A stretch of 64,000 bases of DNA from Gammaproteobacteria bacterium (GTDB lineage Bacteria; Pseudomonadota; Gammaproteobacteria; HK1), in NCBI GenBank assembly GCA_022826505.1, contig JAJDUQ010000009.1, positions 17,242 through 81,241 on the forward strand, in the 5' to 3' direction. Under the pieces are notes generated by a model that was given only the letters and a program-made list of their open reading frames with translations, did not search any database and was not told the origin of the DNA. A program made the position numbers and the translations under genes. Below, piece by piece: positions 13,151-53,477 of the stretch; positions within the stretch are counted from its first letter, which is position 1, and each line of letters opens with the position of its first letter.

Positions 13151-14707
13151 TTACTGCTCGAGCGGGACCTCCCCCGCATCGATGGCGCGCTTGCGCTTCG
13201 CGACGTATTCGCGCAGTGCCTCGTCCACCCCCGGATCGATGGGCGGCGGCTCGTACTCCGCAAGCAGTTGCTTCCAGATTGCGTTTGCCCGCGTGGCCGC
13301 GGAGTGCGCGCCGGATTCGTGCCAGGTCTCGAAGTTGCGCCAGTCCGACACGATCGGCTTGTAGAAGACGTCTTCGTACCGCGAAAGCGTGTGCGTCGCT
13401 CCGAAGAAGTGGCCACCCGGCTGCACCTCGGCAATCGCGTCGACGGCCAGGGTGTCGTCGTCCACCACCACCGGTTCCAGGTACTCGGCCAGGAGCTGGC
13501 ACATTTCCGCGTCAATCACGAGCTTCTCGTACGAAGCGGTCAGCCCGCCTTCGAGCCAGCCAGCGGCGTGGTTGACGATGTTGGTATGCGCCATCACCGA
13601 AGCCCATAGCGACATCTCGCTCTCGTACGCGGCCTGGGCGTCGACCGCATTCGACGCGTTCGTGCTGCTCGCCCGATACGGCACCCGGTAACGACGCGCG
13701 AGCTGAGCGCCGGCCTGCGTCGCCTTCGCGTACTCGGGAGTCCCGAATGCCGGAGCGCCGCTCTTCATGTCCACGTTGGAGGTGAATCCCCCGTAGGCCA
13801 CGGGGGTTCCCGGTCGCACGATCTGGCACAGCACCATCCCCGCCAGCGCCTCGGCGTTCTGCAGGGTGAGCGCCCCGGCGATGGTGGTCGGAGCCATCGC
13901 ACCGAGCAGCGTGAACGGGGTCACGATGACCGGCTGTCCGACCGAGGCGAGCTCGATCATCCCGTCCGACATGTTCGCATCGAGCTGGCGCGGAGAGTTC
14001 GTGTTGATGTTGCCGCTGACGATCGGCTGTGCCGCAAGCTCATCGCGCGTCACTCCGTGAGCGATGCACGCCATCTCCACCGCGTCGTGCGCACGGTAGC
14101 CACCGAGCAGCGACGCGCCCCAGACCTTGTCGTGCAGGGTGATCGCGGCGTAGTACATGTCCAGGTGGCGGGTCGGAGCGGGCAGGTCCAGCGGCGCGAG
14201 AGGCGCAGAGCCACCGAAATGAATGATGTCGAACGAGTACGACAGCTTCATGAAGTTGCGGAAGTCCTCGTAGTCCCCGGCCCTGCGCCCGCGGTCGAGG
14301 TCGGAGACGAACGACGGCCCGCCCACCAGTCCGAAGTTGATGACGTTGCCGCCGAAGTCGAGGGACTTTGCGGGATTGCGCGCCTTCACCGAGTACGACG
14401 GCGGCGCCTTCGCCATGTATTGCGCGATCATCTCCGGATCGAAGCGGACCATCTCGGTGTCCTCGTCCGCCTTCGCACCGGCTCGCGCATAGAGCGCCCG
14501 CGCCTTCGGACTGAGCACCTTCATCCCGATGTCGCGAAGCACCCGCAGCGATGCCTCGTGGATCGCCTCGAGCTGATCCTCGCCGAGGACCCGGGTCGGG
14601 GGATGCGGGTTGCGAACGGTACGCCACGGCAAACGCTGGACTTCGACCGAGGCGCTACGGCGCTCACGCCGATGTCTGCGTGTGCGCCGTCGTGCGGATG
14701 CGGACAT
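13151..14707 (-). CDS. Trimethylamine methyltransferase (MttB) family protein, non-pyrrolysine type
   Basis: MttB-like LVGGPSFVSDLDRGRRAGDYEDFRNFMKL...; no in-frame TAG. Confidence 0.85.
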   Translation of the reverse strand: MSASARRRTRRHRRERRSASVEVQRLPWRTVRNPHPPTRVLGEDQLEAIHEASLRVLRDIGMKVLSPKARALYARAGAKADEDTEMVRFDPEMIAQYMAKAPPSYSVKARNPAKSLDFGGNVINFGLVGGPSFVSDLDRGRRAGDYEDFRNFMKLSYSFDIIHFGGSAPLAPLDLPAPTRHLDMYYAAITLHDKVWGASLLGGYRAHDAVEMACIAHGVTRDELAAQPIVSGNINTNSPRQLDANMSDGMIELASVGQPVIVTPFTLLGAMAPTTIAGALTLQNAEALAGMVLCQIVRPGTPVAYGGFTSNVDMKSGAPAFGTPEYAKATQAGAQLARRYRVPYRASSTNASNAVDAQAAYESEMSLWASVMAHTNIVNHAAGWLEGGLTASYEKLVIDAEMCQLLAEYLEPVVVDDDTLAVDAIAEVQPGGHFFGATHTLSRYEDVFYKPIVSDWRNFETWHESGAHSAATRANAIWKQLLAEYEPPPIDPGVDEALREYVAKRKRAIDAGEVPLEQ

Positions 14708-15971
14708 CGGATGAAAGGACTCCGTGAAGGGAGCCGGAAGGAGACGATCGCGCCGCGAGCGTGTCAAGCGGCTCGCTGATCGGCCATACGAAGCACGCAT
14801 GGCCGGGCTGGCCGACCCACGCCATGAAACGTCCTCTGTCGCGGAGCGGCATTCCCCGGAAGCACGAGTGCATCTTCACGACAAGGCTCCCAGCCGCTCG
14901 CAGATATCGGACAGGGCGTGCACCGGGCGAAGGCTCGAAGTCATCCGGACCGCTGGGATGTCTCCCCTCGGTCCTCGCACCCCCGTGATGCGGTCGCTAG
15001 ACTTCCGGCCACCGAACCCGCTTCAACCCCGGAGACCACCATGCAGATCGACACCGACGCCGGGACCGTCGAATGCCCTTCGAAGTCGCCCCGGCAACCC
15101 GCCTCGCCGGCGCCGGAGTTCCCCGGTTGCCGGCCGGTGACCATCACGCGCGAGGACATCGCCGCCTGGGAAGGCCGCTTCGAGTACTGGGACGGCGACA
15201 CCGAGACCGCCTGGGTCGTCTCCGAGCCCACCAGCGCCACCCACGAGCAACCGGGTGCGCGTCTGGCGGGCTTGAGCCACGTCATCGCCGGGGTGCGCGG
15301 CGCGCCCATCGAGTGCTACGGCACCATGGACCTGCTGCTGCGCGACAAGCGCGGCGAGAAGCGACGCATCATGCAGGCGGATCAGTCGGTCTACCTGCAT
15401 CCCTGGCGGGTCCGGCTCCCGACCGATGCGATGGAGATCGGCCGGCACGATCGCCCCGACGTGGTGCTGGAGGTGGACCACACCACCGACGTGCGTCGTG
15501 GGAAGCTGGGGCTGTACGAGAGTTGGGGCTTCCCCGAGGTGTGGGTGGACGTGCCGGAGGCGGGCTATGCGGTGAGGCGTCCCGCCGGCCTGTCGCCGGG
15601 GTTGACAATCCACCGGCTGGAACGCGGCGGCTATGTGACCGCTGCGCACAGCCGCGCGTTTCCGGGCTGGAGCGCAGCCGAAATCCACACCGCGCTGAAC
15701 GAGGAGATGCTGTCGGAGGAGACCAGCCGGGTGCTGCGGCGTGTGGGCAGGGCGCTGGGGACGCGGGAAGGCACGAGTCCCGACGATACGCCGTGGCTGC
15801 GCATGGAGCGCCGGGAATCACGGGCCGAAGGTGAACGGGCATTGCTGGTTCGCCAGGCGGAGCGGCGGTTCGGGGCTGGGACGGCGGAGCGACTGTCCAC
15901 GCTGCTCCTTCGCATCGAAGGTCCGGATCAACTTGCCGAGGTAAGCGACTGGATCGTCGACTGCGCCACGG

Positions 15972-18245
<2,274 letters not shown>

Positions 18246-38543: not shown

Positions 38544-39602
38544 TCAACCGGCACCGAGCGGATCGCCCTCGTGCATCCCGGCGGTTTGCGCGGCGACGGT
38601 GGCGAGCTGGTCCTCGTCCCAGGCCTCCTCCTGCTGGAGTGCGAAGATCGAGGTATAGCCGCCGGACCAGTCCGGTGGCACCTGACACGGACGCGGGTCG
38701 TGCCGCGCGTAGCGGGCCGGCTTGCCGCGCACGCAGAGGCCCGAGTACGGGGTCCCGAGCGGATTGAACGTGTAGGGGAATGCGTCCGCCGAGGAAAAGG
38801 TATTCAGCAGGAGCGGCCGGCCGATATCCGCGGTATTGGGCTTCGAGCCGTGGATGGTGCGGCAGTTGTGTATGGTCACCGAGCCGGCGGGACCGGTGAG
38901 GTAAGCCGCGCGGTCGAGATCGACCCGTTCGAGATCCGCGTCCGAGATGCACCCGACCCACTGGTCCTTGTCGTTGTACTCGTCGAACAGCTCGCCCAGG
39001 TGGCTGCCGGGGATGACCCCGAGCGGCCCCTGCTCCGATCCGACGTCGTAGAGATAGGTTCCCACCGTCAGCGGGCTGTAGTTGGTGTGTGGCCAGAACT
39101 GGATGTCCTGGTGCCAGCGCACCTCCTCCCCGCCCTGCGCCCACTTGAAGTTGAGCTTCGAGTGGTGGAACTTGACGTCGGGACCGACGAGATCGGCAAC
39201 GACGTCCCCGATGATGGACTCCGACGCGAACGCCCAGTACCGCTCGTCGACGATCACCGGGCTGGAGAGCCGGCGCAGACGCGGCGCCTGCGCCGAGTGG
39301 CCCGGCTCCAGGTCGAACACCGCATCGGAGACCGAGACCGCCCGACTCCTGTCGATCCACTCGTCGGTGACGGCACGCATCCGTTCCACCCACTCGTCGG
39401 GGACGATCGACTCCAGCAGCAGATAGCCGTTCTCGAAGTAGAACTCCCGTTGCTCGTAGCTCAGCACCCGAGGGGGCTGGCTTCGCACTCGTTCGACATC
39501 CACGGCGTACTCTCCCTCGCGCGTCTCGAACCGGCGGGTCGAATCGCCCGTCCCGCACCCCGGACCCCGCACGCGATCAGTGCCCGTGCATCCGGGTAGC
39601 AT
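38544..39602 (-). CDS. Phytanoyl-CoA dioxygenase (PhyH) family, copy A
   Basis: FENGYLLLESIVP, RWHQDIQFWPHTNYSPLTVGTYL, IHNCRTIHGSKPN. Confidence 0.88.
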   Translation of the reverse strand: MLPGCTGTDRVRGPGCGTGDSTRRFETREGEYAVDVERVRSQPPRVLSYEQREFYFENGYLLLESIVPDEWVERMRAVTDEWIDRSRAVSVSDAVFDLEPGHSAQAPRLRRLSSPVIVDERYWAFASESIIGDVVADLVGPDVKFHHSKLNFKWAQGGEEVRWHQDIQFWPHTNYSPLTVGTYLYDVGSEQGPLGVIPGSHLGELFDEYNDKDQWVGCISDADLERVDLDRAAYLTGPAGSVTIHNCRTIHGSKPNTADIGRPLLLNTFSSADAFPYTFNPLGTPYSGLCVRGKPARYARHDPRPCQVPPDWSGGYTSIFALQQEEAWDEDQLATVAAQTAGMHEGDPLGAG

Positions 39603-39680
39603 ATCAATTGTGTACCACCTGCACCGCCCCTAGAATGTTCGCCGACGACACCATCGAAGAACGACTCGGGGGAGCCGACC

Positions 39681-40559
39681 ATGTCCATGGCCGCACTCGC
39701 GCACGAAGGCATCACCGTCTCCAAGCTCCATCCTCACGTCGGAGCCGAGATCATCGGAGTCGATCTCCGCCACCCCCTCGACGAGATGAGCTTCGAGATC
39801 ATCCGCGAAGCGTGGAATCAGCACACGGTGCTCGTGCTGCGCGACCAGCGCATCGACGACGAGCAGCAGGTCGAGTTCGCGAGCCGGTTCGGTACGCTCG
39901 AAGAGACGACGTTCACCGTGGCGGCCGACAACCCCTACATCTACAAGCTCTCGAACGTCGACGACGAGGGGAACGTCCTCCCCGTCGGCTCGAAGAAGCG
40001 CCTGTTTCTCGACGTCAATGCCCGCTGGCACACCGACAGCTCGTTCCGGCCGATTCCCGCCCTGGGCTCGATACTTTCCGCACGCAAGGTGCCTGCGAAG
40101 GAGCATGGCGACACCGCGTTCGCATCGATGCGGGTCGGGTGGGAGACCCTGCCGGACGAGAGAAAGCGTGCGCTGGAAGGACTCGTGGCGGTCCACGACT
40201 ACAGCTACTCGGTCGGGCTGTTCGGCGACAAGCTGATCCCGAAGAGCGAGATGGACTCGGTTCCGCCGGTGCGCCATCCGCTCGTGCGCACCCATCCCCC
40301 GACCGGCCTCGGGAGCCTCTTCGTCAGCGGTCACATCGAACGCATCGATGGGATGCCCGTGGAGGAAGGCCGGGCCCTCGTGGCCGAACTCATCGAGTGG
40401 TGCACCCGACCCGAGTACGTCTACCGCCACCGCTGGCGTCAGCATGACCTGGTGATGTGGGACAACCGGTGCGCGCTGCATCGCGCGACCGCCATCCCCG
40501 CCACCGAGCCGCGTCTGATGCACCGCGCGACCATCGCCGGCGAGGGTCCCGTCGCCTAG
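39681..40559 (+). CDS. TauD/TfdA-type Fe(II)/2OG dioxygenase
   Basis: GAEIIGVDLRHPL, WHTDSSFRPIPALGSIL, WDNRCALHRAT. Confidence 0.9.
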   Translation: MSMAALAHEGITVSKLHPHVGAEIIGVDLRHPLDEMSFEIIREAWNQHTVLVLRDQRIDDEQQVEFASRFGTLEETTFTVAADNPYIYKLSNVDDEGNVLPVGSKKRLFLDVNARWHTDSSFRPIPALGSILSARKVPAKEHGDTAFASMRVGWETLPDERKRALEGLVAVHDYSYSVGLFGDKLIPKSEMDSVPPVRHPLVRTHPPTGLGSLFVSGHIERIDGMPVEEGRALVAELIEWCTRPEYVYRHRWRQHDLVMWDNRCALHRATAIPATEPRLMHRATIAGEGPVA

Positions 40560-40649
40560 AGGTGCGGCGTCGACATCGTCACCGAATCGGGCGCATGCGA
40601 TTCCGCCGTCCGTCCTCGTCTCGTCAACTGTTGCGACTCCCGGCCAGCC

Positions 40650-41552
40650 ATGCACCCCGAAGACGTTCTCACCTGCCCCGCCGTACGCCTGAGCGACACC
40701 GAGCGCCGTTCCTACTTCACCAACGGCTATCTCGCACTGGGCGGCGCCATTTCCCGAAACTGGATCGCACGGTTGCGAGACGCCACCCGCGAGATTGTCG
40801 AGCGCAGCCGCGACGTCGTCGAGGACGACGGCGCCTACGTCCTCGAGGAAGGGCACTGCGCCGAGTCACCCCGGCTGCATCGACTGATGAGCCCCGAAGC
40901 GCATCACCCCGCGTTCTGGGAGTTCATCGCGAGCGAGGAGATGACCGCGCTCGCTGCCGACGTGGTCGGGCCGGACGTCAAGTTCCACCACGCCAAGCTC
41001 AACTTCAAGTCCGGCCGGGGAAGCCGGGGGTTCAGGTGGCATCAGGACATCCCCGCCTGGCCCCACACCGACTACAGCCCGGTCACCGTCGGGGTCTACA
41101 CCGAAGGTTGCAGCCCGGATCAGGGGCCGCTCGCGATGGTGCGCGGCTCCAACCACGGCGCCCTGTACACGCAATACGACCATCACGGCAACTACGCAGT
41201 GTCCTGTCGCGAGGAGGACATCGAGTGGGTGCGCGACGACATGGTCGACGCGCCGACCGGAGGCCCGGGTACCGTGGTGCTGCTGCACTGCCGAACCATC
41301 CACGGCTCGCGCACCAACCGCTCCGACGCTCCACGACCGCTGTTGCTCGCGGTGTACTCGAGCGCCGACTCCTTCGCCTACACCTCGGCCCCCATCGACG
41401 GACCGTATCGGGGCACCGTCGTGCGCGGTCAGCCGGCACGCTACGCCTCCTTCGACACCCGCCCGTGCGAACTGCCCCCCGACTGGGCGCGTGCCGGCTA
41501 CGCCGGACCGTGGGAGCTGCAGAAGAACGCCGCGGCCACTGGCGGCAACTGA
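40650..41552 (+). CDS. PhyH family dioxygenase, copy B
   Basis: FTNGYLALGG, RWHQDIPAWPHTDYSPVTVGVY, LLHCRTIHGSRTN; close paralog of copy A. Confidence 0.88.
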   Translation: MHPEDVLTCPAVRLSDTERRSYFTNGYLALGGAISRNWIARLRDATREIVERSRDVVEDDGAYVLEEGHCAESPRLHRLMSPEAHHPAFWEFIASEEMTALAADVVGPDVKFHHAKLNFKSGRGSRGFRWHQDIPAWPHTDYSPVTVGVYTEGCSPDQGPLAMVRGSNHGALYTQYDHHGNYAVSCREEDIEWVRDDMVDAPTGGPGTVVLLHCRTIHGSRTNRSDAPRPLLLAVYSSADSFAYTSAPIDGPYRGTVVRGQPARYASFDTRPCELPPDWARAGYAGPWELQKNAAATGGN

Positions 41553-41966
41553 CGGCCACAGCGATCATCGGGAGTCGCCCACCGGGCACCGCGGGACGAA
41601 ATCACCAGGCCGGGCAAGTCTCGCACTTTCAATCGACCGTGCGCACCGACCAGCCGAGTCAGTCGTGCACGATCACGCCCCGGGCGTTCACTCCCCTCTC
41701 CAGTGAGAACGGTTCGGTTTCTCGACACCACGGCTGGCCGACCGCTCGGGCCGCGCGTTCGAACCGCTTGTTCTCGATCGCGCGAACATGTGGGCACATG
41801 ACGCGAGGGTACGGGCAAGGTGGTGGGCAACGCGCCGGCGGAGCAGGACTCCGGAATGTGCGAATCGGGCCGGTCCGGCTCGGGCACGGAATCCGGCGAC
41901 GTCGCGTTGCCAGCGATTCGGACTCGAAATAGGATGCACCTCGAGCGTTGCCACGGGAGACGACCG

Positions 41967-42833
41967 ATGACGAAGCGGCTCGATGAGACCGCGATCCGCA
42001 ACTACCGAGACGCCGGGTTCCACTCGCCGCTCGGGGTGCTGTCGGGCGCCGAGGCGCAAGCGATTCGCAATGCACTGGAAGCGGTGGAGGCGGAACAGGG
42101 CCCGGTGTTCAGCGAGAACCGCACCCGGGCCGGTGCCGCGTTCCAGGGCTCGTACCGCTACAAGAGCCATCTGCTGTTCAAGTGGCTCGCGGACGTCATT
42201 CGACACCCTGCCATCCTGGACGCGGTCGAGGATCTGATCGGCCCCGACATCCTGTGCTGGACCACCCACTGGTTCGTCAAGGAGGCGCGCTCGCCGCAGT
42301 ACGTGTCGTGGCACCAGGACAGCAACTACTGGGGCGTCGAGACCGACGACCTGGTGAGCGTGTGGCTCGCGGTGTCGGAGTCGACGGTGGAGAGCGGCTG
42401 CGTGCGCCTTCTTCCCGGCAGTCACAAGACGCCGGCGATGGAGCACGTCGACACCTGGGCCGAGCACAACATGCTCACCCGGGGACAGACCATCGAGGGG
42501 GTGGACGAATCGCTGGCTGTCGATCTGGAACTCGCCCCGGGCGAGGTGGCGCTCTTCGACTATCGCCTCGCACACGCGTCGCATCCCAACCGCAGCGGCG
42601 ATCGCCGCATCGGTATCGGTCTGCGCTACATTCCGCCAACCGCACGCCAGGTCCGGCACGAGTGGGACTCCGCGACACTGGTACGCGGGACCGACAGGTA
42701 CGGCCATTTCGAGCTGGAACCCGTTCCGGCGCGGGATTTCGACCCGGTCGCGGTCGAGATGTATCGCCGCAGCGACGAAGCCCAGCGCGGTGTGTACTAC
42801 CAGGGGGCGGAGGTTGGCGGAGCGGCGGGGTAG
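41967..42833 (+). CDS. PhyH family dioxygenase, copy C
   Basis: SWHQDSNYWGVETDDLVSVWLAV, GCVRLLPGSH, FDYRLAHASHPN. Confidence 0.88.
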   Translation: MTKRLDETAIRNYRDAGFHSPLGVLSGAEAQAIRNALEAVEAEQGPVFSENRTRAGAAFQGSYRYKSHLLFKWLADVIRHPAILDAVEDLIGPDILCWTTHWFVKEARSPQYVSWHQDSNYWGVETDDLVSVWLAVSESTVESGCVRLLPGSHKTPAMEHVDTWAEHNMLTRGQTIEGVDESLAVDLELAPGEVALFDYRLAHASHPNRSGDRRIGIGLRYIPPTARQVRHEWDSATLVRGTDRYGHFELEPVPARDFDPVAVEMYRRSDEAQRGVYYQGAEVGGAAG

Positions 42834-43143
42834 TGGACTCGACGGGTCGCGCGAGACATCCGCGCAATCGGCACCACGGTGCCCCGAAGGGATCGACTCG
42901 CCCGAATCCATGCGACGGATCGCGCCACCACTTGCGCGTCATCGGCGAACGGGTGCGCGAGAGACATGTGCTCGAGAATCAACGAATCCCCGGTCTTGCG
43001 GGCATGACCGGACTTGCATTGGAGGTGCCTCGCCCTCCAGGCTCGCGCCCCCCGAAATCGGGGAACGAGAAACCGTGCCGCCTTGACCGAACTCGAACGG
43101 GCGGTAACTTCGCAGGACTCCAGATGCGTGTTCGGAGCGACTC

Positions 43144-44316
43144 ATGGTCCGTCTGACAGATCTTCACCCCGACGATCGAGCGCACCTCGCCGGCAAGCAT
43201 CTCCCGCGGTTCGACCCGCCGGCGTACACCGCGGCCCTGCCGCTCGCACGGTCACGGTTCGCGCTCGTCACCACCGCCGGCCTCCACGTGCGCGGCGATC
43301 GCCTGTTCGACATCACGAGCGCCGAGTACCGCACCATCGGACGCGAGACCGCGGGCGGCGACATCGTCATGAGCCATGCGTCGGTCAACTTCGACCGAAC
43401 CGCATTCGCAGAAGACGTCAATGTCGTGTTTCCCATCGATCGATTTCGCGAGCTGGAGGCATCCGGGGCGATCGGTTCGATGGCGGACCTCCACTACTCG
43501 TTCATGGGTGCCTATCTGGAGCCGGCCGACTACGCGCCGAGCGCCCGCGAACTCGCTTCGCTGCTGCGCGGCGATGGCGTCGATTCGGTCTTCCTCACCC
43601 CGGTGTGACCGAACTGCACGCGCGCCGTGAGCGCGCTGTCGCACTTTCTGGAAACCGAAGGACTGTCGACCACCGGCATCAGCCTCGTGCGCCATCACAC
43701 CGAGGAGATGGCCCCGCCACGCGCGCTCTGGGTGCCATTCCCACTCGGCCGACCACTCGGCGCGGCCGGCGACGCGGCGTTTCAGCACCGGGTCATCGCC
43801 GCCGCGCTCGCACTTCTCGGCAGGACCGAGGGACCGGTGCTCGAAGACTACGCGGAGCCGGCGCCGGACGTTGGCTCGAACGAGCCATGGTCCTGCCCCG
43901 TTCGGTTTGCGCGTGTGACGGACGAGACCGACATCGGCGCCGCGGCTCGGGCCGAACTTGCCGGACTCGTCACGTGGCACGACCTCGCGACTCGGCGACG
44001 CGGCCGAACCATGGCCGACACGTCCGGCCTGACAATCGAGCAGTGCCTCGAGCTGGTCGTCGACGTGTGCGAGTCGGGCCGAACGGATGACGTCCGCACG
44101 CTCAAGGCGGCGGTCGACGATCTCGAGACGTACTACCGCGAAGCGGTCACCGCCAGACCGGGAACTCCGCCGCTCGGAGCCGTCGACACGATTCTCTGGA
44201 ATGATTCAGCACTCGGTCGACTCCTGCGGCACCTCGGCGCTCGTGGTGCGAGGAGCGACGATTCGGCCTTGAGGTTCTTCACGAGCAACGGGCTGGTCCC
44301 GAGGCAGTTCCGGTAG
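43144..44316 (+). CDS. Glycine/sarcosine/betaine/D-proline reductase selenoprotein B (GrdB/PrdB)-like protein, candidate selenoprotein with in-frame TGA at 43606-43608
   Basis: ORF track splits it into 43144-43608 and 43627-44316; both are in the same frame; junction reads ...DGVDSVFLTPV-(TGA)-PNCTRAVSALSHFLETEGLSTTGISLVRHHTEEMAPPRALWVPFPLGRPLG, a UxxC redox motif. Confidence 0.82.
43609..43643 (+). promoter_or_regulatory. Candidate bacterial SECIS hairpin downstream of TGA
   Basis: GCGCGC(43620-43625)-CGTGA-GCGCGC(43631-43636), further pairing A618-T639 and C619-G638 with one bulge; loop starts 17 nt after the TGA. Confidence 0.6.
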
Positions 44317-44431
44317 CGCGGACTCGAACCTTCGGCAAGGCAGAAGACGCACCGCCCGCGCCCGATGCGCACGGTTGATGTCTATACTCCGCAGCGTCGG
44401 GCCGGGTCGGCCCATGCGTTCGGAGACTGTG

Positions 44432-46150
44432 ATGTCGGTCGTGCCCGTCACCCGTGGTCATCAGCATGTCGTCAGCGCGGGCCATGAACTCGCGGCGCTC
44501 GCCGCGTTCGAGGCCCTGGACAACGGCGGCAACGCCATCGACGCAGGCGTCGCCGCAATCCTGACCCTGGGGGTAGTGTACAGCGATCAGGTGAGCATCG
44601 CCGGGGTGGCCCCGATGATCATTCGCCTCGCGGAGACGGGCGAGGTGGTCACGATTGCCGGCGTCGGGGGCTGGCCGCGCGCGCTCGATCCCGATGCGTA
44701 CATCGCGCGCCACCAGGGCGTCATCCCGCTCGGGTTGCGGCGCACCGTGGTGCCGGCGGCCCCCGATGCGTGCCTCCAGGCACTGGAGCGATGGGGCACG
44801 ATGGCGTTCCGCGACGTCGCGGCGCGCGCAGTGCGCTACGCATCCGGAGGCTTCGCCCGCCACCCGGTCATGCTCGACTACGTGCGCCGGTACGCCGACG
44901 ACATGCGGCACTGGCCGCAAAACGTCGATATCTGGATGCCGAACGGCGAGGTGCCGGCACCCGGCGACAAGCTCGTCCAGGCCGACCTCGGCCGCGCCCT
45001 GCAATTCCTCTGCGACGAGGAACGCGCGGCCGGTGGCGACCGCATGGCCGGACTCGCGGCGGTGCGTCGGGCGTTCTACCGGGGCGACATCGCAAGCCGG
45101 ATCCTTGCGCATCAGAGGGAACACGACGGTCTGCTCGCGGCCGAGGACCTGGAATCGTTCCGATGCCGGGTCGTGCCCTCGGTGGCGCGCCGCTTCCGCT
45201 TCGACGGCGAGGAGGTGGAGGTCCATACCTGCGGCGCGTGGTGTCAGGGTCCGTTCCTGCTCGAAGCGCTCTCGATCGCGGAAGCAGCCGGCGTTCGAGA
45301 CCTCGAGTACGGATCGGATGCCTATCTCCATGCGATTGCCGAAACTCTCAAACTCACGTTCGCCGATCGGGAAGGCTACCTCGGCGACCCGGACTTCGTG
45401 GACGTGCCGCTCGATACGCTCGTCGGCGCGGCGTACGCCGCCGAGCGGCAAAGGGCAATCGACCCGTGGAACGCGTCTCCGGGGATGCCGCTTCCCGGCC
45501 GCATCCCCGGCCATGCCGCATACGTGCCCGCGATTGCCGGGGCCGAGGAGCCGCTCGGGCCTCCGCCCGATACGTCCATCGTCTGCGTCATCGACGGCGA
45601 GGGAAACGGGCTCTGCTCCACCCCGTCGGACACGGCCTGGGATACCCCGGTGGTACCGGAAACCGGATTCGCGGTGTCGTCGCGCGGTGCCCAGTCGTGG
45701 GCGGTGCACGGCCACCCGTCCTGCGTCGCACCCGGCAAGCGTCCGCGCCTCACCCCCAACCCCTGCTTCGTCCTGTCTCCGGGGAACTGGATCATGCCGT
45801 TCGGTACCCCCGGCGGAGACACCCAGATTCAGGCGAACCTGCAGTCGCTCCTGAACCACCTGGCCTTCGGCATGGACCTCCAGGACGCGGTCGAGGCGCC
45901 GCGCCTGGTGACCCACAGCCATCCCGACACCTTCGCGCCCCACACCGCCCGTCCCGGACTGGTGACCCTCGAAGGACGGATCGACGCGTCGACATGCGAC
46001 CGGCTTGCCGCGCGTGGACACCGCATCGAACGTCTCGACGACTGGACGCACTGGACAGGCGGGGTGTGTGCGGTCCGCAAGGACCTGGGGACCGGTGAGA
46101 TCGAAGCGGCGGCGGACCCCAGACGCTGGAGCCGTGCGATGGGCTGGTGA
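44432..46150 (+). CDS. Gamma-glutamyltransferase family protein
   Basis: GGNAIDAGVAAILTLGVVYSDQVSIAG, PPDTSIVCVIDGEGNGLCSTPSD, FGTPGGDTQIQANLQSLLN. Confidence 0.88.
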   Translation: MSVVPVTRGHQHVVSAGHELAALAAFEALDNGGNAIDAGVAAILTLGVVYSDQVSIAGVAPMIIRLAETGEVVTIAGVGGWPRALDPDAYIARHQGVIPLGLRRTVVPAAPDACLQALERWGTMAFRDVAARAVRYASGGFARHPVMLDYVRRYADDMRHWPQNVDIWMPNGEVPAPGDKLVQADLGRALQFLCDEERAAGGDRMAGLAAVRRAFYRGDIASRILAHQREHDGLLAAEDLESFRCRVVPSVARRFRFDGEEVEVHTCGAWCQGPFLLEALSIAEAAGVRDLEYGSDAYLHAIAETLKLTFADREGYLGDPDFVDVPLDTLVGAAYAAERQRAIDPWNASPGMPLPGRIPGHAAYVPAIAGAEEPLGPPPDTSIVCVIDGEGNGLCSTPSDTAWDTPVVPETGFAVSSRGAQSWAVHGHPSCVAPGKRPRLTPNPCFVLSPGNWIMPFGTPGGDTQIQANLQSLLNHLAFGMDLQDAVEAPRLVTHSHPDTFAPHTARPGLVTLEGRIDASTCDRLAARGHRIERLDDWTHWTGGVCAVRKDLGTGEIEAAADPRRWSRAMGW

Positions 46151-47554: not shown

Positions 47555-48919
47555 TCAGTCCGGCGCACAGGTCCGGAAGCCCCCGAAGACGTCGCGGCGG
47601 TCCGGGCCGAAGAAGTTCCGGTACAGCCCGGTCACCATGCGCGATCGGGTCGTCCACGCCCCGCCGCGCAGCACCCGGGTGTGGCCGAACAGCGTCTGCG
47701 AGTACTCCTTGTAGGCGTCCGGGGTGAAGCCGGGATAGGGACAGAACGCGTCCGCGCACCACTCCCAGACGTTGCCGAGCATCTGGCGGCAGCCGAAGGC
47801 GCTGTCGCCGTTCGGCAGCGCCGCGACGTCGACACACCCCGGCGAGCGGCCGTCGAGGTTGGTGCGCGAAGGGTCGGCGGCGTCTCCGCCCCACGGATAA
47901 CGCCGCTTCGTCTCCGATAGGCATCCGCCGCCCGCGGCCGGCTCGCCGAGGGCGGCCACCTCCCATTCGCGCTCGCGAGGCAGACGCCGGCCGGCCCACC
48001 GGCACCACGCATTCGCCTCGAACCAGTTGACGTGAACGACAGGGCGGTGCGGGGCGAGCGCTTGCGTCTCGTCGAATTCCCGGACGAGCCAACCGCCCTC
48101 GCCGTCGCGCTCCCAGTACACGGGATGCTCCGCCTGCACCGACTCGCGCCACCGCCACCCCGCGTCGTTCCAGTGCTCGCGGCGCGCGTAGCCGCCGTCG
48201 TCCACGAACTCGGCAAACTCGGAGTTGGTCACCGGTGCCCGGGCGATGCGAAACGGACGCACCTCGACCGGGTGGCACCACTTCTCGTTGTCGAACACGA
48301 ACGGCGCGTCGCCGGGGGCGCCGAGGAGGAACGCCCCGCCCGGCACGGATGCGTCGCCGGGCAGTGCGCCCGCGTCGGCGTCCGCCGGCGGACCGAGGTC
48401 GCGCGCGACCGCGAACCCCGGCCGCGGATAGCCGAGTGTCTGGCGCGTCCATGCGAACGCCTCGTCGTGCATGTCCTCGTGGAACGCGGTGAACTGGTAG
48501 AGGTAGCTGTCCACCGCGCTCGCGAGTCCGGTTCCGAGCCGTTCGAGCATGCGGTCATGGACGCGCTGCATGTACGCGAGGGTCTCCGCTCGCGACGGCA
48601 GGGGGAGGTCCCAGCGCCGGTCGTGGTGGATCGCGATGGAGTCGTAGAGCGCGTGACCGTCGTCGAGCAGTGGTGCTTCGCCGTACACCCGCTGCAGGAT
48701 GAAATGCTCGTGGAACCACGCGACGTGCCCAATCTCCCAACGCATCGGGTTGACGATGCGCAACCGCGGCCCCATGAGCTGTTCGTCGGTGAGGTCGTCG
48801 ACGAGTTCTCGGGTACGCTTGCGGGCATCGCGGATGTACGCTTCCAGCGTCGCCGAACCGACCTCCTCGACCGGGGGGATGCCGGCCGGGACGACGACCG
48901 GGGAATTGCCGATGACCAA
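47555..48919 (-). CDS. senA: EgtB/SUMF1-type iron-dependent synthase; candidate selenoneine synthase SenA
   Basis: DinB-like HVAWFHEHFIL, FTAFHEDMHDEAF; FGE-type domain ...GNVWEWCADAFCPYPGFTP...LRGGAW; divergent neighbour of SenB-type glycosyltransferase. Confidence 0.78.
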   Translation of the reverse strand: MVIGNSPVVVPAGIPPVEEVGSATLEAYIRDARKRTRELVDDLTDEQLMGPRLRIVNPMRWEIGHVAWFHEHFILQRVYGEAPLLDDGHALYDSIAIHHDRRWDLPLPSRAETLAYMQRVHDRMLERLGTGLASAVDSYLYQFTAFHEDMHDEAFAWTRQTLGYPRPGFAVARDLGPPADADAGALPGDASVPGGAFLLGAPGDAPFVFDNEKWCHPVEVRPFRIARAPVTNSEFAEFVDDGGYARREHWNDAGWRWRESVQAEHPVYWERDGEGGWLVREFDETQALAPHRPVVHVNWFEANAWCRWAGRRLPREREWEVAALGEPAAGGGCLSETKRRYPWGGDAADPSRTNLDGRSPGCVDVAALPNGDSAFGCRQMLGNVWEWCADAFCPYPGFTPDAYKEYSQTLFGHTRVLRGGAWTTRSRMVTGLYRNFFGPDRRDVFGGFRTCAPD

Positions 48920-48958: not shown

Positions 48959-49933
48959 GTGATCACGCCGGCCGCGAAACGCTCGCTCAGCGGCAATCGG
49001 GCCACGGCGGTGCGTTGGGCTCGAATTCTGACGCGTCTAGGGCATTCGGTCACCGTCGCGGAAGCTTGGCCGGGCGCCGAGGGAGGCGGTGGAAGCCGGT
49101 CGCGGAGCCCCGACCTCCTGATTGCGATTCACGCGTGGAGGAGCGCGGACTCCGTCGCCGCGTTTCGGGCTCGGCATCCGTCCCGGCCGATCGTGGTTCT
49201 GATGTCCGGCACCGACATCTACCGATTCCAGCACAGCCACCGGGAGACGACGACCGCATCGATGTCGACCGCGGATCGGCTCGTCGGCCTGCACGATGCC
49301 GTGGCCGACGACCTGCCGCGGCAGTACCGCTCGAAGCTCCGGATCATCCACCAGTCGGCGCTGCCCCTGCGTACTCCCCGCATGCCCGTGGGCCGCACCT
49401 TCGACGTCTGCGTGATCGGACATCTGCGCGCCGAGAAGGACCCGTTTCGGGCCGCTCGCGCCGCGCGTCTCGCACCGGCCGCATCGAACCTTCGCGTCAT
49501 CCATCTCGGAAAGCCGCACGACGCAGACCACGAACGGGACGCACGGGTGGAGATGGCGGCCAACCCTCGCTACGTCTGGCGTGGCGAAGTGCCGCGCTGG
49601 CAGGTCCGGCGCACCTTCGCACGCTGCCGCGCGATGGTGATGAGCTCACTCATGGAAGGCGGCGCGAACGTCGTCTCGGAGGCGGTGGTGGCGGGAGTCC
49701 CGGTCATCGCATCCGACATTCCCGGGAATGTCGGACTGCTCGGCCCCGACCACCCCGCGCTCTACCCGCCCGGCGACACCGAAGCACTCCGCGCCCTGCT
49801 CCACCGCGCCGAGACCGAGCCCGGCTTCCTCCACACGGTGCGTGCGCACGGCGATGCGCGGCGCCACCGGTTCGAGCCGGAACGCGAACACGCGGCCTGG
49901 GCCGCGCTGCTCTTCGAACTGGTGACTTCCTGA
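48959..49933 (+). CDS. senB: Glycosyltransferase of the former TIGR04348 type; candidate selenosugar synthase SenB (GTG or upstream CTG start)
   Basis: ISVITPAAKRSLSGNRATAVRWARILTRLGHSVTV signature; VVSEAVVAGVPVIASDIPGNVGLLG donor region. Confidence 0.8.
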   Translation: MITPAAKRSLSGNRATAVRWARILTRLGHSVTVAEAWPGAEGGGGSRSRSPDLLIAIHAWRSADSVAAFRARHPSRPIVVLMSGTDIYRFQHSHRETTTASMSTADRLVGLHDAVADDLPRQYRSKLRIIHQSALPLRTPRMPVGRTFDVCVIGHLRAEKDPFRAARAARLAPAASNLRVIHLGKPHDADHERDARVEMAANPRYVWRGEVPRWQVRRTFARCRAMVMSSLMEGGANVVSEAVVAGVPVIASDIPGNVGLLGPDHPALYPPGDTEALRALLHRAETEPGFLHTVRAHGDARRHRFEPEREHAAWAALLFELVTS

Positions 49934-50112: not shown

Positions 50113-50772
50113 TCATTCGGACCCGTCGACCTCCAGTACGGGGGGCGGACAGTCCAGGTGGTCGATCCAGGCGACCATCACCAGCAGAGGCTCCTTGCCG
50201 GTGCGCGTGGCATGGCCCTGATCGCTGGCGTGAAACAGCCATTCTCCGGGCATGCGGGTGCGCCACGGCTCTCCGTCTCGCCGCCATTGCGCCGTCCCGG
50301 AAATGACGTGGTAGAGCTCCGGTGCCTTGTGACGGTGCAGCGGATAGAAGATTCCAGGGGCCTGCAACGTGAACGCAACGAGTACGTGCGAGTTCGCGAA
50401 CGGCGCCTGGTAACCCTCTCTGGGCGACGGACCCGGCATCGACAACATGGTGGTTGTGTAGCCGGTAGCCAGATCGTCCGCACCTTCTCCGCGCTGGTAC
50501 GGCGCGATCCATCGCAGGTGCGGAGATGCCGAAGCCAGCGCGCCCGCGAGCATCCGTTCGCGAGATGTGGTCGCCGCCCGCACCGCGGCATCGAAACAGC
50601 CCGCAACCACCGACGTGGTCGCGGGCTCGACCGCCCCCGCGCTCGGAGGAAACGGCCGGCTCATCAGATCGTCAAGGATGCTTGTTTCCGGGCATCGGGA
50701 TGCGTCGGACCGAGCTGCGTATCGGACCGCGGTGCGGGTGGCCGACAGCAGCAATTCAATCGGGGAAGGCAT
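50113..50772 (-). CDS. Cupin, dimethylsulfoniopropionate (DMSP) lyase-like
   Basis: PLHRHKAPELYHVISGTAQWRRDGEPWRTRMPGEWLFHASDQGHATRTGKEPLL metal-binding cupin motif. Confidence 0.7.
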   Translation of the reverse strand: MPSPIELLLSATRTAVRYAARSDASRCPETSILDDLMSRPFPPSAGAVEPATTSVVAGCFDAAVRAATTSRERMLAGALASASPHLRWIAPYQRGEGADDLATGYTTTMLSMPGPSPREGYQAPFANSHVLVAFTLQAPGIFYPLHRHKAPELYHVISGTAQWRRDGEPWRTRMPGEWLFHASDQGHATRTGKEPLLVMVAWIDHLDCPPPVLEVDGSE

Positions 50773-51125: not shown

Positions 51126-53477
51126 TCAATGCTGCACGGTGATCGGTTCCAGGGCGTTGCTGCGCGGGAGCACGCGACCGATCAGCGAAGTTTGCGCGTA
51201 CCCGAGTGAACGCAACTCCTCGACACAGGCGTGTGATTCGCGGTCCGGGACGGACGCCAGCAGACCGCCCGCAGTCTGCGGATCGAACAGCAGCGGCCAG
51301 CGCGGATCGGCGGCGGCTCCGTCGACGTTGCGTACCGCCCGGCGCAGGCGCAGGTTCTGGGGCTGCAGAGAGCTCGTGATGCCGGCCGCAATGGTGTCGA
51401 GGGCGCCGGGAAGCGAAGGGATCGTGCGGAGGTCGAGTTCCACGTCGACATCGGAGGCGCGCACCATCTCGACCAGATGACCGAGAAGCCCGAATCCGGT
51501 CACGTCGGTACAGGCACTCGCGCCGCGGCGATGCAGGCACAGCGCCCCGGCACGATTGGACTGCAGCATCATTGCGAGCGCCGCCGCGATCCAGGTGCCG
51601 CGGGCCTTGTGCCGCATGTCGGCGGCGAAGAGCGTGCCGGTCCCGAGCGGTTTGGTGACGAGCAGGCGATCGCCTGGACGCATTCCCCCCTTTCGCAGGA
51701 TTCCGTCGCGGTCGATCAGACCGCTCACCGAGAAGCCGAGCGCCAGCTCCGCCCCTTCGCTGGTATGACCTCCCACGAGCGCGCAGCCGGCCTCGCGCAG
51801 CACTTCCGTCGCGCCGGTCATCATCTGCCACAGCGTATCCTCGACCTGTGACTCGATTCCGTAGGGCAGGGTCGCGATGGCGAGCGCGGTCTGCGGCTCG
51901 CCCCCCATTGCGAAGATGTCCCCGAGACTGTGGTTGGCGGCAACGCGGCCGAACAGATAGGGGTCGTCGATCATCGCGCGAAACGAATCGACGGTGTGGA
52001 CCGTCACCTTGCCCGGCGGCGTCTCCACCACCGCCGCGTCGTCAGGGTCCGCGAGCCCGATGAGCACGTCGCGCCGCGCGACCGGTCTGATGTCGTTCAT
52101 CACCCGCGCCAGCACCGTCGCACCAACCTTCGCACCGCAGCCACCGCAGCGCATGGCGATGGCCGAGAGCTCCTTGACCGCATCGTCGCCGGCGACGCCG
52201 CTCGGGAGCTCGATCCTCGAGTCGTCCACCATGTCGGGAAGATCGGAGAACTTGCGCATGAACCGGCGATCGATCCAGTCCTTCCATCTCCACACCCAGT
52301 CTCCCTCGAACACGAGCGCTCCGCCTCGGGTCGCGACCGCGTTGCGATCACCGGTGCTGATCAGGCTCAGATAGCGGCGCTGCGGCACGAACGGCTTCAG
52401 CGAGAGGCCGCGCAGCGCCCGGCGCAGGTTCTTCTCGAGCGCGGGACCTTGTCTGACCGCGAAGACCCCGGCCTTCTCGCGAGGATGCTCCAGCACCGAG
52501 GCGCAGTCCCCAGCCGCGAAGACGCCGGGATGAGAGGTGGATTCGAGCGTCGGGTGAACGGCGGCAAAGCCGTCGTCGTCGGTGGCGAGGCCGGAGGTGG
52601 CAAGCCACGGCTGGGCACCGGCCGCGGTGACCCAGAGCACCTCGTCGAGCTCGTGCATCGCGCCGTCCCCGGTGTGCAGGACGCAGGGATAGCCGGTCCC
52701 GTATCCGATCCCGTCTCCAGCGCCCGCCTCCGTGCCTCCGGTAAGGCCGGCGGCATGCAGCGCACCCGGAGTGACGCGGTCGACCCACCCGCCGAGATGG
52801 ACCCGCACATCGCGCTCGGCCAGCACGCGGGTGAATGCGTCGCGCACCCGGGGGGGCTTGCGGGGCAGTACCTTCTCGCTGCCCGTGAACAGCTCGAAGC
52901 TCAACCGGTCGGGGTTGCCGCCGGCCGCTTGCAGCCGGGTACGCAGTCCGTGTCGCATGGCGAGCACCATCTCCACGCCACCGGCCCCCGCCCCGACCAC
53001 TCCGATCCTCACCCGAGCCTCGCTGGCGAGCACCCGTTCGACGAGCGCATTCCAGCGCGCGACGAAGTTTCCGATCGGCTTGACCGGCACCACCACGCCG
53101 CTGGCTCCGGGCACCGCGTCGGTGAGCGGCGCCGAGCCGATGTCGATCGAGAGCACGTCATAGGGGACCGGCGGGCGATTGCGGCAGATGACGGTGCGTT
53201 CGACTGGATCCAGTCCGACCACCTCGTCGTGGTAGAAGCGGGCGCTGGCGAAACGGGCCAGGGGGCCGAGGTCGATGTGAATCTCGTCGTGGGTGTAGTG
53301 TCCGGCGACATGGCCCGGCAGCATTCCGGAGTACGGCGTCTCGATGTCCCTGCAGATGAGCGTGATCCGCACACCCGGCACCGGCTTCATTCCGAAGCGC
53401 TTGAGCACGATGACGTGGCTGTGACCACCCCCGGCGAGCACGAGATCCTTGACGATTGGTGGCGATCCGGCGTTCAC
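51126..53477 (-). CDS. selD: NDH2-like FAD oxidoreductase fused to selenide, water dikinase (SelD); candidate SenC/SelD function
   Basis: N-terminal GGGHSHVIVLKRFGMKP...GVVGAGAGGVEMVLAMRHGL, FAAGDCASV; C-terminal MRCGGCGAKVGATVL, TVDSFRAMIDDPYLFGRVAANHSLGDIFAMGG, VGGHTSEGAEL, TDVTGFGLLGHLVEM, FDPQTAGGLLASV. Confidence 0.92.
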   Translation of the reverse strand: MNAGSPPIVKDLVLAGGGHSHVIVLKRFGMKPVPGVRITLICRDIETPYSGMLPGHVAGHYTHDEIHIDLGPLARFASARFYHDEVVGLDPVERTVICRNRPPVPYDVLSIDIGSAPLTDAVPGASGVVVPVKPIGNFVARWNALVERVLASEARVRIGVVGAGAGGVEMVLAMRHGLRTRLQAAGGNPDRLSFELFTGSEKVLPRKPPRVRDAFTRVLAERDVRVHLGGWVDRVTPGALHAAGLTGGTEAGAGDGIGYGTGYPCVLHTGDGAMHELDEVLWVTAAGAQPWLATSGLATDDDGFAAVHPTLESTSHPGVFAAGDCASVLEHPREKAGVFAVRQGPALEKNLRRALRGLSLKPFVPQRRYLSLISTGDRNAVATRGGALVFEGDWVWRWKDWIDRRFMRKFSDLPDMVDDSRIELPSGVAGDDAVKELSAIAMRCGGCGAKVGATVLARVMNDIRPVARRDVLIGLADPDDAAVVETPPGKVTVHTVDSFRAMIDDPYLFGRVAANHSLGDIFAMGGEPQTALAIATLPYGIESQVEDTLWQMMTGATEVLREAGCALVGGHTSEGAELALGFSVSGLIDRDGILRKGGMRPGDRLLVTKPLGTGTLFAADMRHKARGTWIAAALAMMLQSNRAGALCLHRRGASACTDVTGFGLLGHLVEMVRASDVDVELDLRTIPSLPGALDTIAAGITSSLQPQNLRLRRAVRNVDGAAADPRWPLLFDPQTAGGLLASVPDRESHACVEELRSLGYAQTSLIGRVLPRSNALEPITVQH

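What the first reader, a model, noticed from the sequence alone, without database searches (positions are those of the whole stretch)
43144..44316. Split ORF is a probable UGA-recoded selenoprotein of the GrdB/PrdB type
Seen: 43144-43608 ends in TGA (43606-43608), and the same frame stays open to 44316. The protein continues across the TGA as ...DGVDSVFLTPV-U-PNC-TRAVSALSHFLETEGLSTTGISLVRHHTEEMAPPRALWVPFPLGRPLG. The TGA sits exactly where a UxxC redox motif would be. Established: the glycine/sarcosine/betaine and D-proline reductase B-type family uses Sec in a UxxC motif. Standard gene callers would report two hypothetical proteins, as the ORF track did.
Basis: partly seen in the sequence, partly recalled or inferred. 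Interest (0 to 1): 0.9.

Follow-up and report, generated by a model that had tools for sequence, protein, structure and literature searches.

The report
Selenoprotein with unknown extra domain
What looks like two genes is one gene for a selenium-containing redox protein, in which a 'stop' codon is read as selenocysteine; the protein type has been known from ocean bacteria since 2005, but this version carries an extra, uncharacterised domain.

Summary
The finding is real. 43144-44316 is one 390-aa gene with TGA (43606-43608) at codon 155, best read as selenocysteine in a U-P-N-C motif. Of 26 homologous copies from Gammaproteobacteria, 22 have TGA and 4 have TGC (Cys) at this column. A bacterial SECIS hairpin (43620-43636) follows; it meets all four published criteria and its stem covaries across homologs. 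The genome has tRNA-Sec, selB and selA in one cluster, and its only selD is in this window. In 24 genomes checked, selB is present in 13 of 13 with TGA copies and 0 of 11 others. Codons beyond the TGA are under purifying selection (dN/dS 0.15-0.23). The protein belongs to the GrdB/PrdB superfamily (Pfam GRDB) but not to the D-proline or glycine reductase B subunits: it scores 98 bits against PrdB's cut-off of 300, lacks GrdB's third Cys, and no PrdA or GrdA was found. PrdB-like UxxC selenoproteins were already abundant in the 2005 and 2008 ocean surveys, so the kind is known. New here: a monophyletic long subfamily with a ~165-aa C-terminal helical domain of no known family or fold. Substrate and the extra domain's role are unknown.

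The parts
43144..44316 (+). Complete selenoprotein gene, 390 residues plus TAG stop; GrdB/PrdB superfamily, long subfamily
   Evidence: Read-through translation; 77% identical full-length copy in G002 and 43-49% in others; dN/dS 0.21 before, 0.15 just after and 0.23 far after the TGA
43134..43137 (+). GGAG, Shine-Dalgarno-like, 6 nt before the ATG (inference)
   Evidence: Sequence; no comparable GGAG lies before the GTG of the downstream ORF at 43627
43606..43608 (+). TGA read as selenocysteine, residue 155
   Evidence: 22 of 26 homologous copies have TGA and 4 have TGC at this column
43606..43617 (+). U-P-N-C redox motif (U155, C158)
   Evidence: U/C155, P156 and C158 invariant in 20 aligned homologs
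43620..43636 (+). bSECIS upper stem-loop: 6-bp stem, loop CGUGA at 43626-43630, 17 nt after the TGA; weaker lower stem 43616-43617 with 43639-43640
   Evidence: Folding and synonymous-codon null; covariation across 16 distinct sequences
43237..43818 (+). GrdB/PrdB-like domain, about residues 32-225
   Evidence: Pfam PF07355 38.4 bits, cut-off 22; TIGR04483 residues 26-225
43819..44313 (+). C-terminal domain (residues 226-390), predicted six-helix, specific to the long subfamily
   Evidence: Alignments A1 and A3; model pLDDT 83.6; no Pfam, PDB-sequence or significant fold match
44375..46150 (+). Gamma-glutamyltransferase family gene, conserved next neighbour within the genus
   Evidence: PF01019 323 bits; also next to the homolog in G002 (85% identical) and to the remnant in G003 (81%)
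51126..53477 (-). selD (Cys form) fused behind an FAD/NAD oxidoreductase; the only selD over cut-off in the genome
   Evidence: TIGR00476 298.7 bits, cut-off 125; whole-genome search

Best explanation
One gene encodes a UGA-recoded selenoprotein of the GrdB/PrdB superfamily. SelB carrying Sec-tRNA(Sec) binds the hairpin just after the UGA and inserts selenocysteine at residue 155, so the ribosome continues to 44316 (shown by sequence and comparative evidence, not by experiment). The product most likely uses U155 as an attacking selenol and C158 as the resolving thiol, in a selenenyl-sulfide redox cycle on a small substrate (inferred from the UxxC motif and from known GrdB/PrdB). It probably works without the pyruvoyl and acetyl-transfer partners of Stickland reductases; the C-terminal helical domain may supply the substrate pocket, an interaction surface or oligomerisation (inferred).
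For: Homology continues across the TGA, with a 77% identical full-length copy in G002. The column is U in 22 copies and Cys in 4. A bSECIS fits the published model: 5-nt loop, G at loop position 2, 17-nt spacing, -15.9 kcal/mol (criteria in PMC13188914). Stem covariation gives 29 two-sided cells against 11.1 in shuffles, 0 of 500 as high, and collapses when slid. tRNA-Sec, selB and selA lie on C70 and selD in the window. SelB is over cut-off in 13 of 13 genomes with TGA copies and 0 of 11 others. Purifying selection beyond the TGA. In G280 a long copy lies 0.8 kb before selA-selB, in G375 2.3 kb before selA.
Against: No protein-level evidence. The source assembly is a MAG with 7.4% estimated contamination, and selABC lies on another contig than the window. 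Individual SECIS folds are only modestly better than a synonymous-codon null (mean z -1.57). Catalysis, substrate and the role of the C-terminal domain are not shown.
Confidence: 0.95

Rival explanations
1. The TGA is a true stop: either two separate proteins, or a pseudogene broken by a nonsense mutation or sequencing error.
For: Standard ORF calling gives two ORFs; long open extensions are common by chance here (22 of 157); a truncated copy does exist in G003.
Against: The same TGA recurs in 21 other homologous copies in a range of genomes; dN/dS is 0.15-0.23 beyond it; selB presence tracks TGA presence; the second ORF starts inside the SECIS loop (GTG 43627), within the conserved domain.
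Confidence: 0.02
2. It is a genuine D-proline reductase PrdB or glycine/sarcosine/betaine reductase GrdB subunit.
For: Pfam GRDB over its gathering score; best NCBIfam hit is PrdB; UxxC motif.
Against: 97.9 bits against the 300-bit PrdB cut-off and 45-56 bits against the GrdB-type models; residue 161 is Ala, so there is no UxxCxxC; no PrdA or GrdA in 8 carrier genomes (though no control genome held the family to prove the search's power); extra C-terminal domain.
Confidence: 0.03
3. UGA is read as another amino acid (for example Trp) or by leaky readthrough rather than as Sec.
For: Not excluded by the open frame alone.
Against: The column alternates with Cys, never Trp; a SECIS hairpin and complete Sec machinery are present; neighbouring genes end normally.
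Confidence: 0.01

Closest known systems
PrdB-like UxxC selenoproteins of the Sargasso Sea and GOS surveys (PMC1088965: 42 sequences; PMC2398784: 235 sequences)
   Same: Same Pfam family, UxxC motif, bSECIS behind the UGA, Cys homologs exist
   Different: The surveys give no sign, in the text read here, of a C-terminal extension; the short UPVCHQ form found in these same genomes (about 290-310 aa) is probably the surveyed type (inference)
D-proline reductase PrdB (TIGR04483)
   Same: Homologous over residues 26-225, UxxC at the active site
   Different: 98 bits vs 300-bit cut-off, no PrdA found, about 150 residues longer at the C-terminus
Glycine/sarcosine/betaine reductase GrdB, GrdF, GrdH (PF07355, TIGR01917/01918)
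   Same: Homologous to the C-terminal part of the Pfam model (positions 221-345 of 347); UxxC
   Different: Lacks the N-terminal two thirds of the model and the third Cys of UxxCxxC; no GrdA found

Membership tests
Bacterial selenoprotein (Sec-decoded gene) | In-frame UGA with U/C exchange among homologs | tested here: met
   22 TGA and 4 TGC copies
Bacterial selenoprotein (Sec-decoded gene) | bSECIS: 3-9 nt loop, 4-16 bp upper stem, G in first two loop positions, 16-37 nt spacing, MFE <= -7.5 (PMC13188914) | tested here: met
   5-nt loop CGUGA, 6-bp stem, G at position 2, 17 nt, -15.9 kcal/mol; covariation
Bacterial selenoprotein (Sec-decoded gene) | Genome carries tRNA-Sec, selA, selB, selD | tested here: met
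   contig caveat: the assembly has 7.4% estimated contamination
Bacterial selenoprotein (Sec-decoded gene) | Selenium in the protein | not testable with these tools
   Needs labelling or mass spectrometry
GRDB superfamily (PF07355) | Score over Pfam gathering threshold | tested here: met
   38.4 bits vs 22
D-proline reductase PrdB (TIGR04483) | Equivalog score over 300 bits | tested here: not met
   97.9 bits
D-proline reductase PrdB (TIGR04483) | PrdA partner in the genome | tested here: inconclusive
   No match in 8 carrier genomes, but no control genome holds PrdA, so the search's power is unproven
Glycine reductase GrdB | UxxCxxC motif | tested here: not met
   UPNCTRA: residue 161 is Ala, and Ala in all long copies aligned
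Glycine reductase GrdB | GrdA partner in the genome | tested here: inconclusive
   No match in 8 genomes, no positive control rang

The most novel reading that the evidence does not exclude
The long subfamily is a distinct selenoenzyme class: a GrdB/PrdB-type redox core fused to a new helical domain, acting in aerobic or host-associated Gammaproteobacteria on a substrate unrelated to Stickland fermentation, without PrdA or GrdA.
Probability: 0.35. Interest if true: 0.6.

Novelty: new variant of a known kind. Interest (0 to 1): 0.36.

Why it matters
Annotation pipelines split such genes at the UGA, so the protein and its extra domain stay invisible. PrdB-like selenoproteins are among the commonest in ocean metagenomes, yet no reaction has been assigned to them in the literature read here. 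A subfamily with a separate domain and up to three paralogs per genome gives a concrete protein to purify and assay.

Tried and rejected
(1) Selenoneine link: SenA and SenB (over cut-off) and SelD lie 3-10 kb downstream, suggesting a shared selenium pathway. Rejected as a conserved association: of 24 other genomes only G007 and G008 have SenA over cut-off, G007 has no PrdB-like match, and G002, which has the closest copy of this gene, has no SenA. (2) PDB sequence search with the family profile: only one insignificant de novo design hit. (3) Foldseek with the full model: nothing at E <= 0.001; the best hits are B12-binding photocobilins at E 2.5e-3 with TM 0.26, too weak to use. Foldseek and Pfam with the C-terminal domain: nothing. 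(4) Search for the C-terminal domain on its own in 399 genomes of the phylum: found only in this genome's three long proteins. (5) Scan of genome contigs found only the G002 record, an uncultured Gammaproteobacteria MAG. (6) Rfam at gathering threshold: nothing in the window. (8) Invariant Cys251 (WxCP) looked like a possible third redox Cys, but the G280 and G375 copies lack it.

Full report
Observation. Reading the single in-frame TGA as Sec, window 43144-44316 gives one 390-residue protein with U155 in ...VFLTPV-U-PNC-TRAVSAL.... Ordinary ORF calling splits it at the TGA. Open continuation alone proves little at 67% GC: 22 of 157 TGA-ended open stretches of at least 150 codons continue for at least 200 codons.

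Family. Residues 32-152 match Pfam GRDB (38.4 bits, gathering score 22). Residues 26-225, across the TGA, match the PrdB model TIGR04483 at 97.9 bits, far below its 300-bit equivalog cut-off; the GrdB, GrdF and GrdH models score 45-56 bits. So it belongs to the superfamily, but not to any of the named reductases.

The TGA column. Homologs were collected from whole genomes and read through. Of 26 distinct copies, counting the window's, 22 have TGA at this column and 4 have TGC; none has another residue. A further copy in G003 is truncated and lacks the column. The window's genome G000 holds four such genes, each with one TGA. U/C155, P156 and C158 are invariant in the 20-sequence alignment.

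Translation beyond the TGA. Against the G002 copy (77% identical over residues 1-390), dN/dS is 0.21 for codons 1-154, 0.15 for codons 156-226 and 0.23 for the C-terminal part; synonymous divergence is lowest just after the TGA (0.31 vs 0.46 and 1.00), as expected if an RNA element lies there.

SECIS. The 42 nt after the TGA fold into a hairpin with a 6-bp stem at 43620-43636 and the loop CGUGA, 17 nt after the TGA, at -15.9 kcal/mol. The published bSECIS model requires a 3-9 nt loop, a 4-16 bp stem, a G in the first two loop positions, 16-37 nt spacing and MFE of at most -7.5 (PMC13188914); all four are met. Against synonymous-codon randomisations the mean z is -1.57 for the 22 TGA copies and 0.01 for the 4 Cys copies. 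On 16 distinct sequences the stem shows 29 two-sided changes that keep a pair, against 11.1 in shuffles (0 of 500 as high), and the signal collapses when the partner is slid by 1-3 columns. RNAalifold, unprompted, finds the same stem, five of its eight pairs with compensatory changes.

Machinery. G000 has tRNA-Sec (73.6 bits; ARAGORN agrees), selB and selA side by side on contig C70. Its only selD over cut-off is in this window, fused behind an oxidoreductase domain. Among 24 other genomes, SelB over cut-off is found in all 13 that hold TGA copies and in none of the 11 that hold only a Cys copy or none. These genomes are related, so this is a consistent pattern and not 24 independent trials. 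In G280 a long copy lies 0.8 kb before selA-selB, and in G375 2.3 kb before selA.

Two subfamilies. A tree of the shared domain puts the 10 long proteins (390-433 aa; one start codon uncertain) in one clade with 100/100 support, apart from the short UPVCHQ type, which includes the four Cys forms. The long proteins share a C-terminal domain (window residues ~226-390) with no Pfam family, no PDB sequence relative, no significant fold match, and no occurrence outside the long proteins in 399 genomes of the phylum. AlphaFold2 predicts it as six helices (pLDDT 83.6) after an alpha/beta core (full model pLDDT 80.7, pTM 0.70).

How it most likely works. Sec insertion by SelB and the SECIS is well supported by comparison. 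That U155 and C158 form a selenenyl-sulfide redox pair is inferred from the motif and from known GrdB/PrdB chemistry. That the protein works without PrdA or GrdA is inferred from their absence in 8 carrier genomes, with the caveat that no control genome contained those families. Substrate is unknown. Within the genus the next gene is a gamma-glutamyltransferase; other neighbours differ between genomes.

Novelty. PrdB-like UxxC selenoproteins were reported as abundant in the Sargasso Sea (42 sequences, PMC1088965) and the Global Ocean Sampling data (235 sequences, PMC2398784). The recoding is therefore a new member of a known kind; the long subfamily with its unassigned domain makes it a new variant. 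I found no paper describing that domain, but only part of the literature is held.

Noticed in passing
window 47555-48919 (-), 48959-49933 (+), 51126-53477 (-): Selenoneine biosynthesis genes: SenA (491.6 bits, cut-off 420) and SenB (382.8 bits, cut-off 300), divergent, about 1-2 kb from a fused SelD, which could serve as SenC. The genome thus appears to use selenium for both selenoproteins and selenoneine.
   Followed up: partly
window 51126-53477 (-): SelD fused behind a pyridine-nucleotide-disulfide oxidoreductase; it matches both selD (over cut-off) and the 'fusion_not_SelD' model (476 bits, under its 700 cut-off). As the genome's only selD it suggests that some fusion proteins of this type are real SelDs.
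   Followed up: partly
window 38544-42833: Three PhyH-type and one TauD-type dioxygenase genes in a row before the selenoprotein gene.
   Followed up: no
window 50113-50772 (-): Cupin protein matching Pfam DMSP_lyase (81 bits).
   Followed up: no
L061 (G003:C1), about 3136927-3137538: Truncated copy of the long selenoprotein (residues 187-390 only) next to an intact gamma-glutamyltransferase: probably a remnant gene.
   Followed up: partly
L063 (G000:C19): A long paralog near a GcvT-like protein related to TMAO/DMSP demethylases, a PhyH-like dioxygenase and a possible glutathione S-transferase.
   Followed up: no
L064 (G000:C70) 14523-16640 (-): SelB in this genus is about 706-749 aa and matches its model in two pieces, suggesting an insertion or a diverged middle region.
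   Followed up: no
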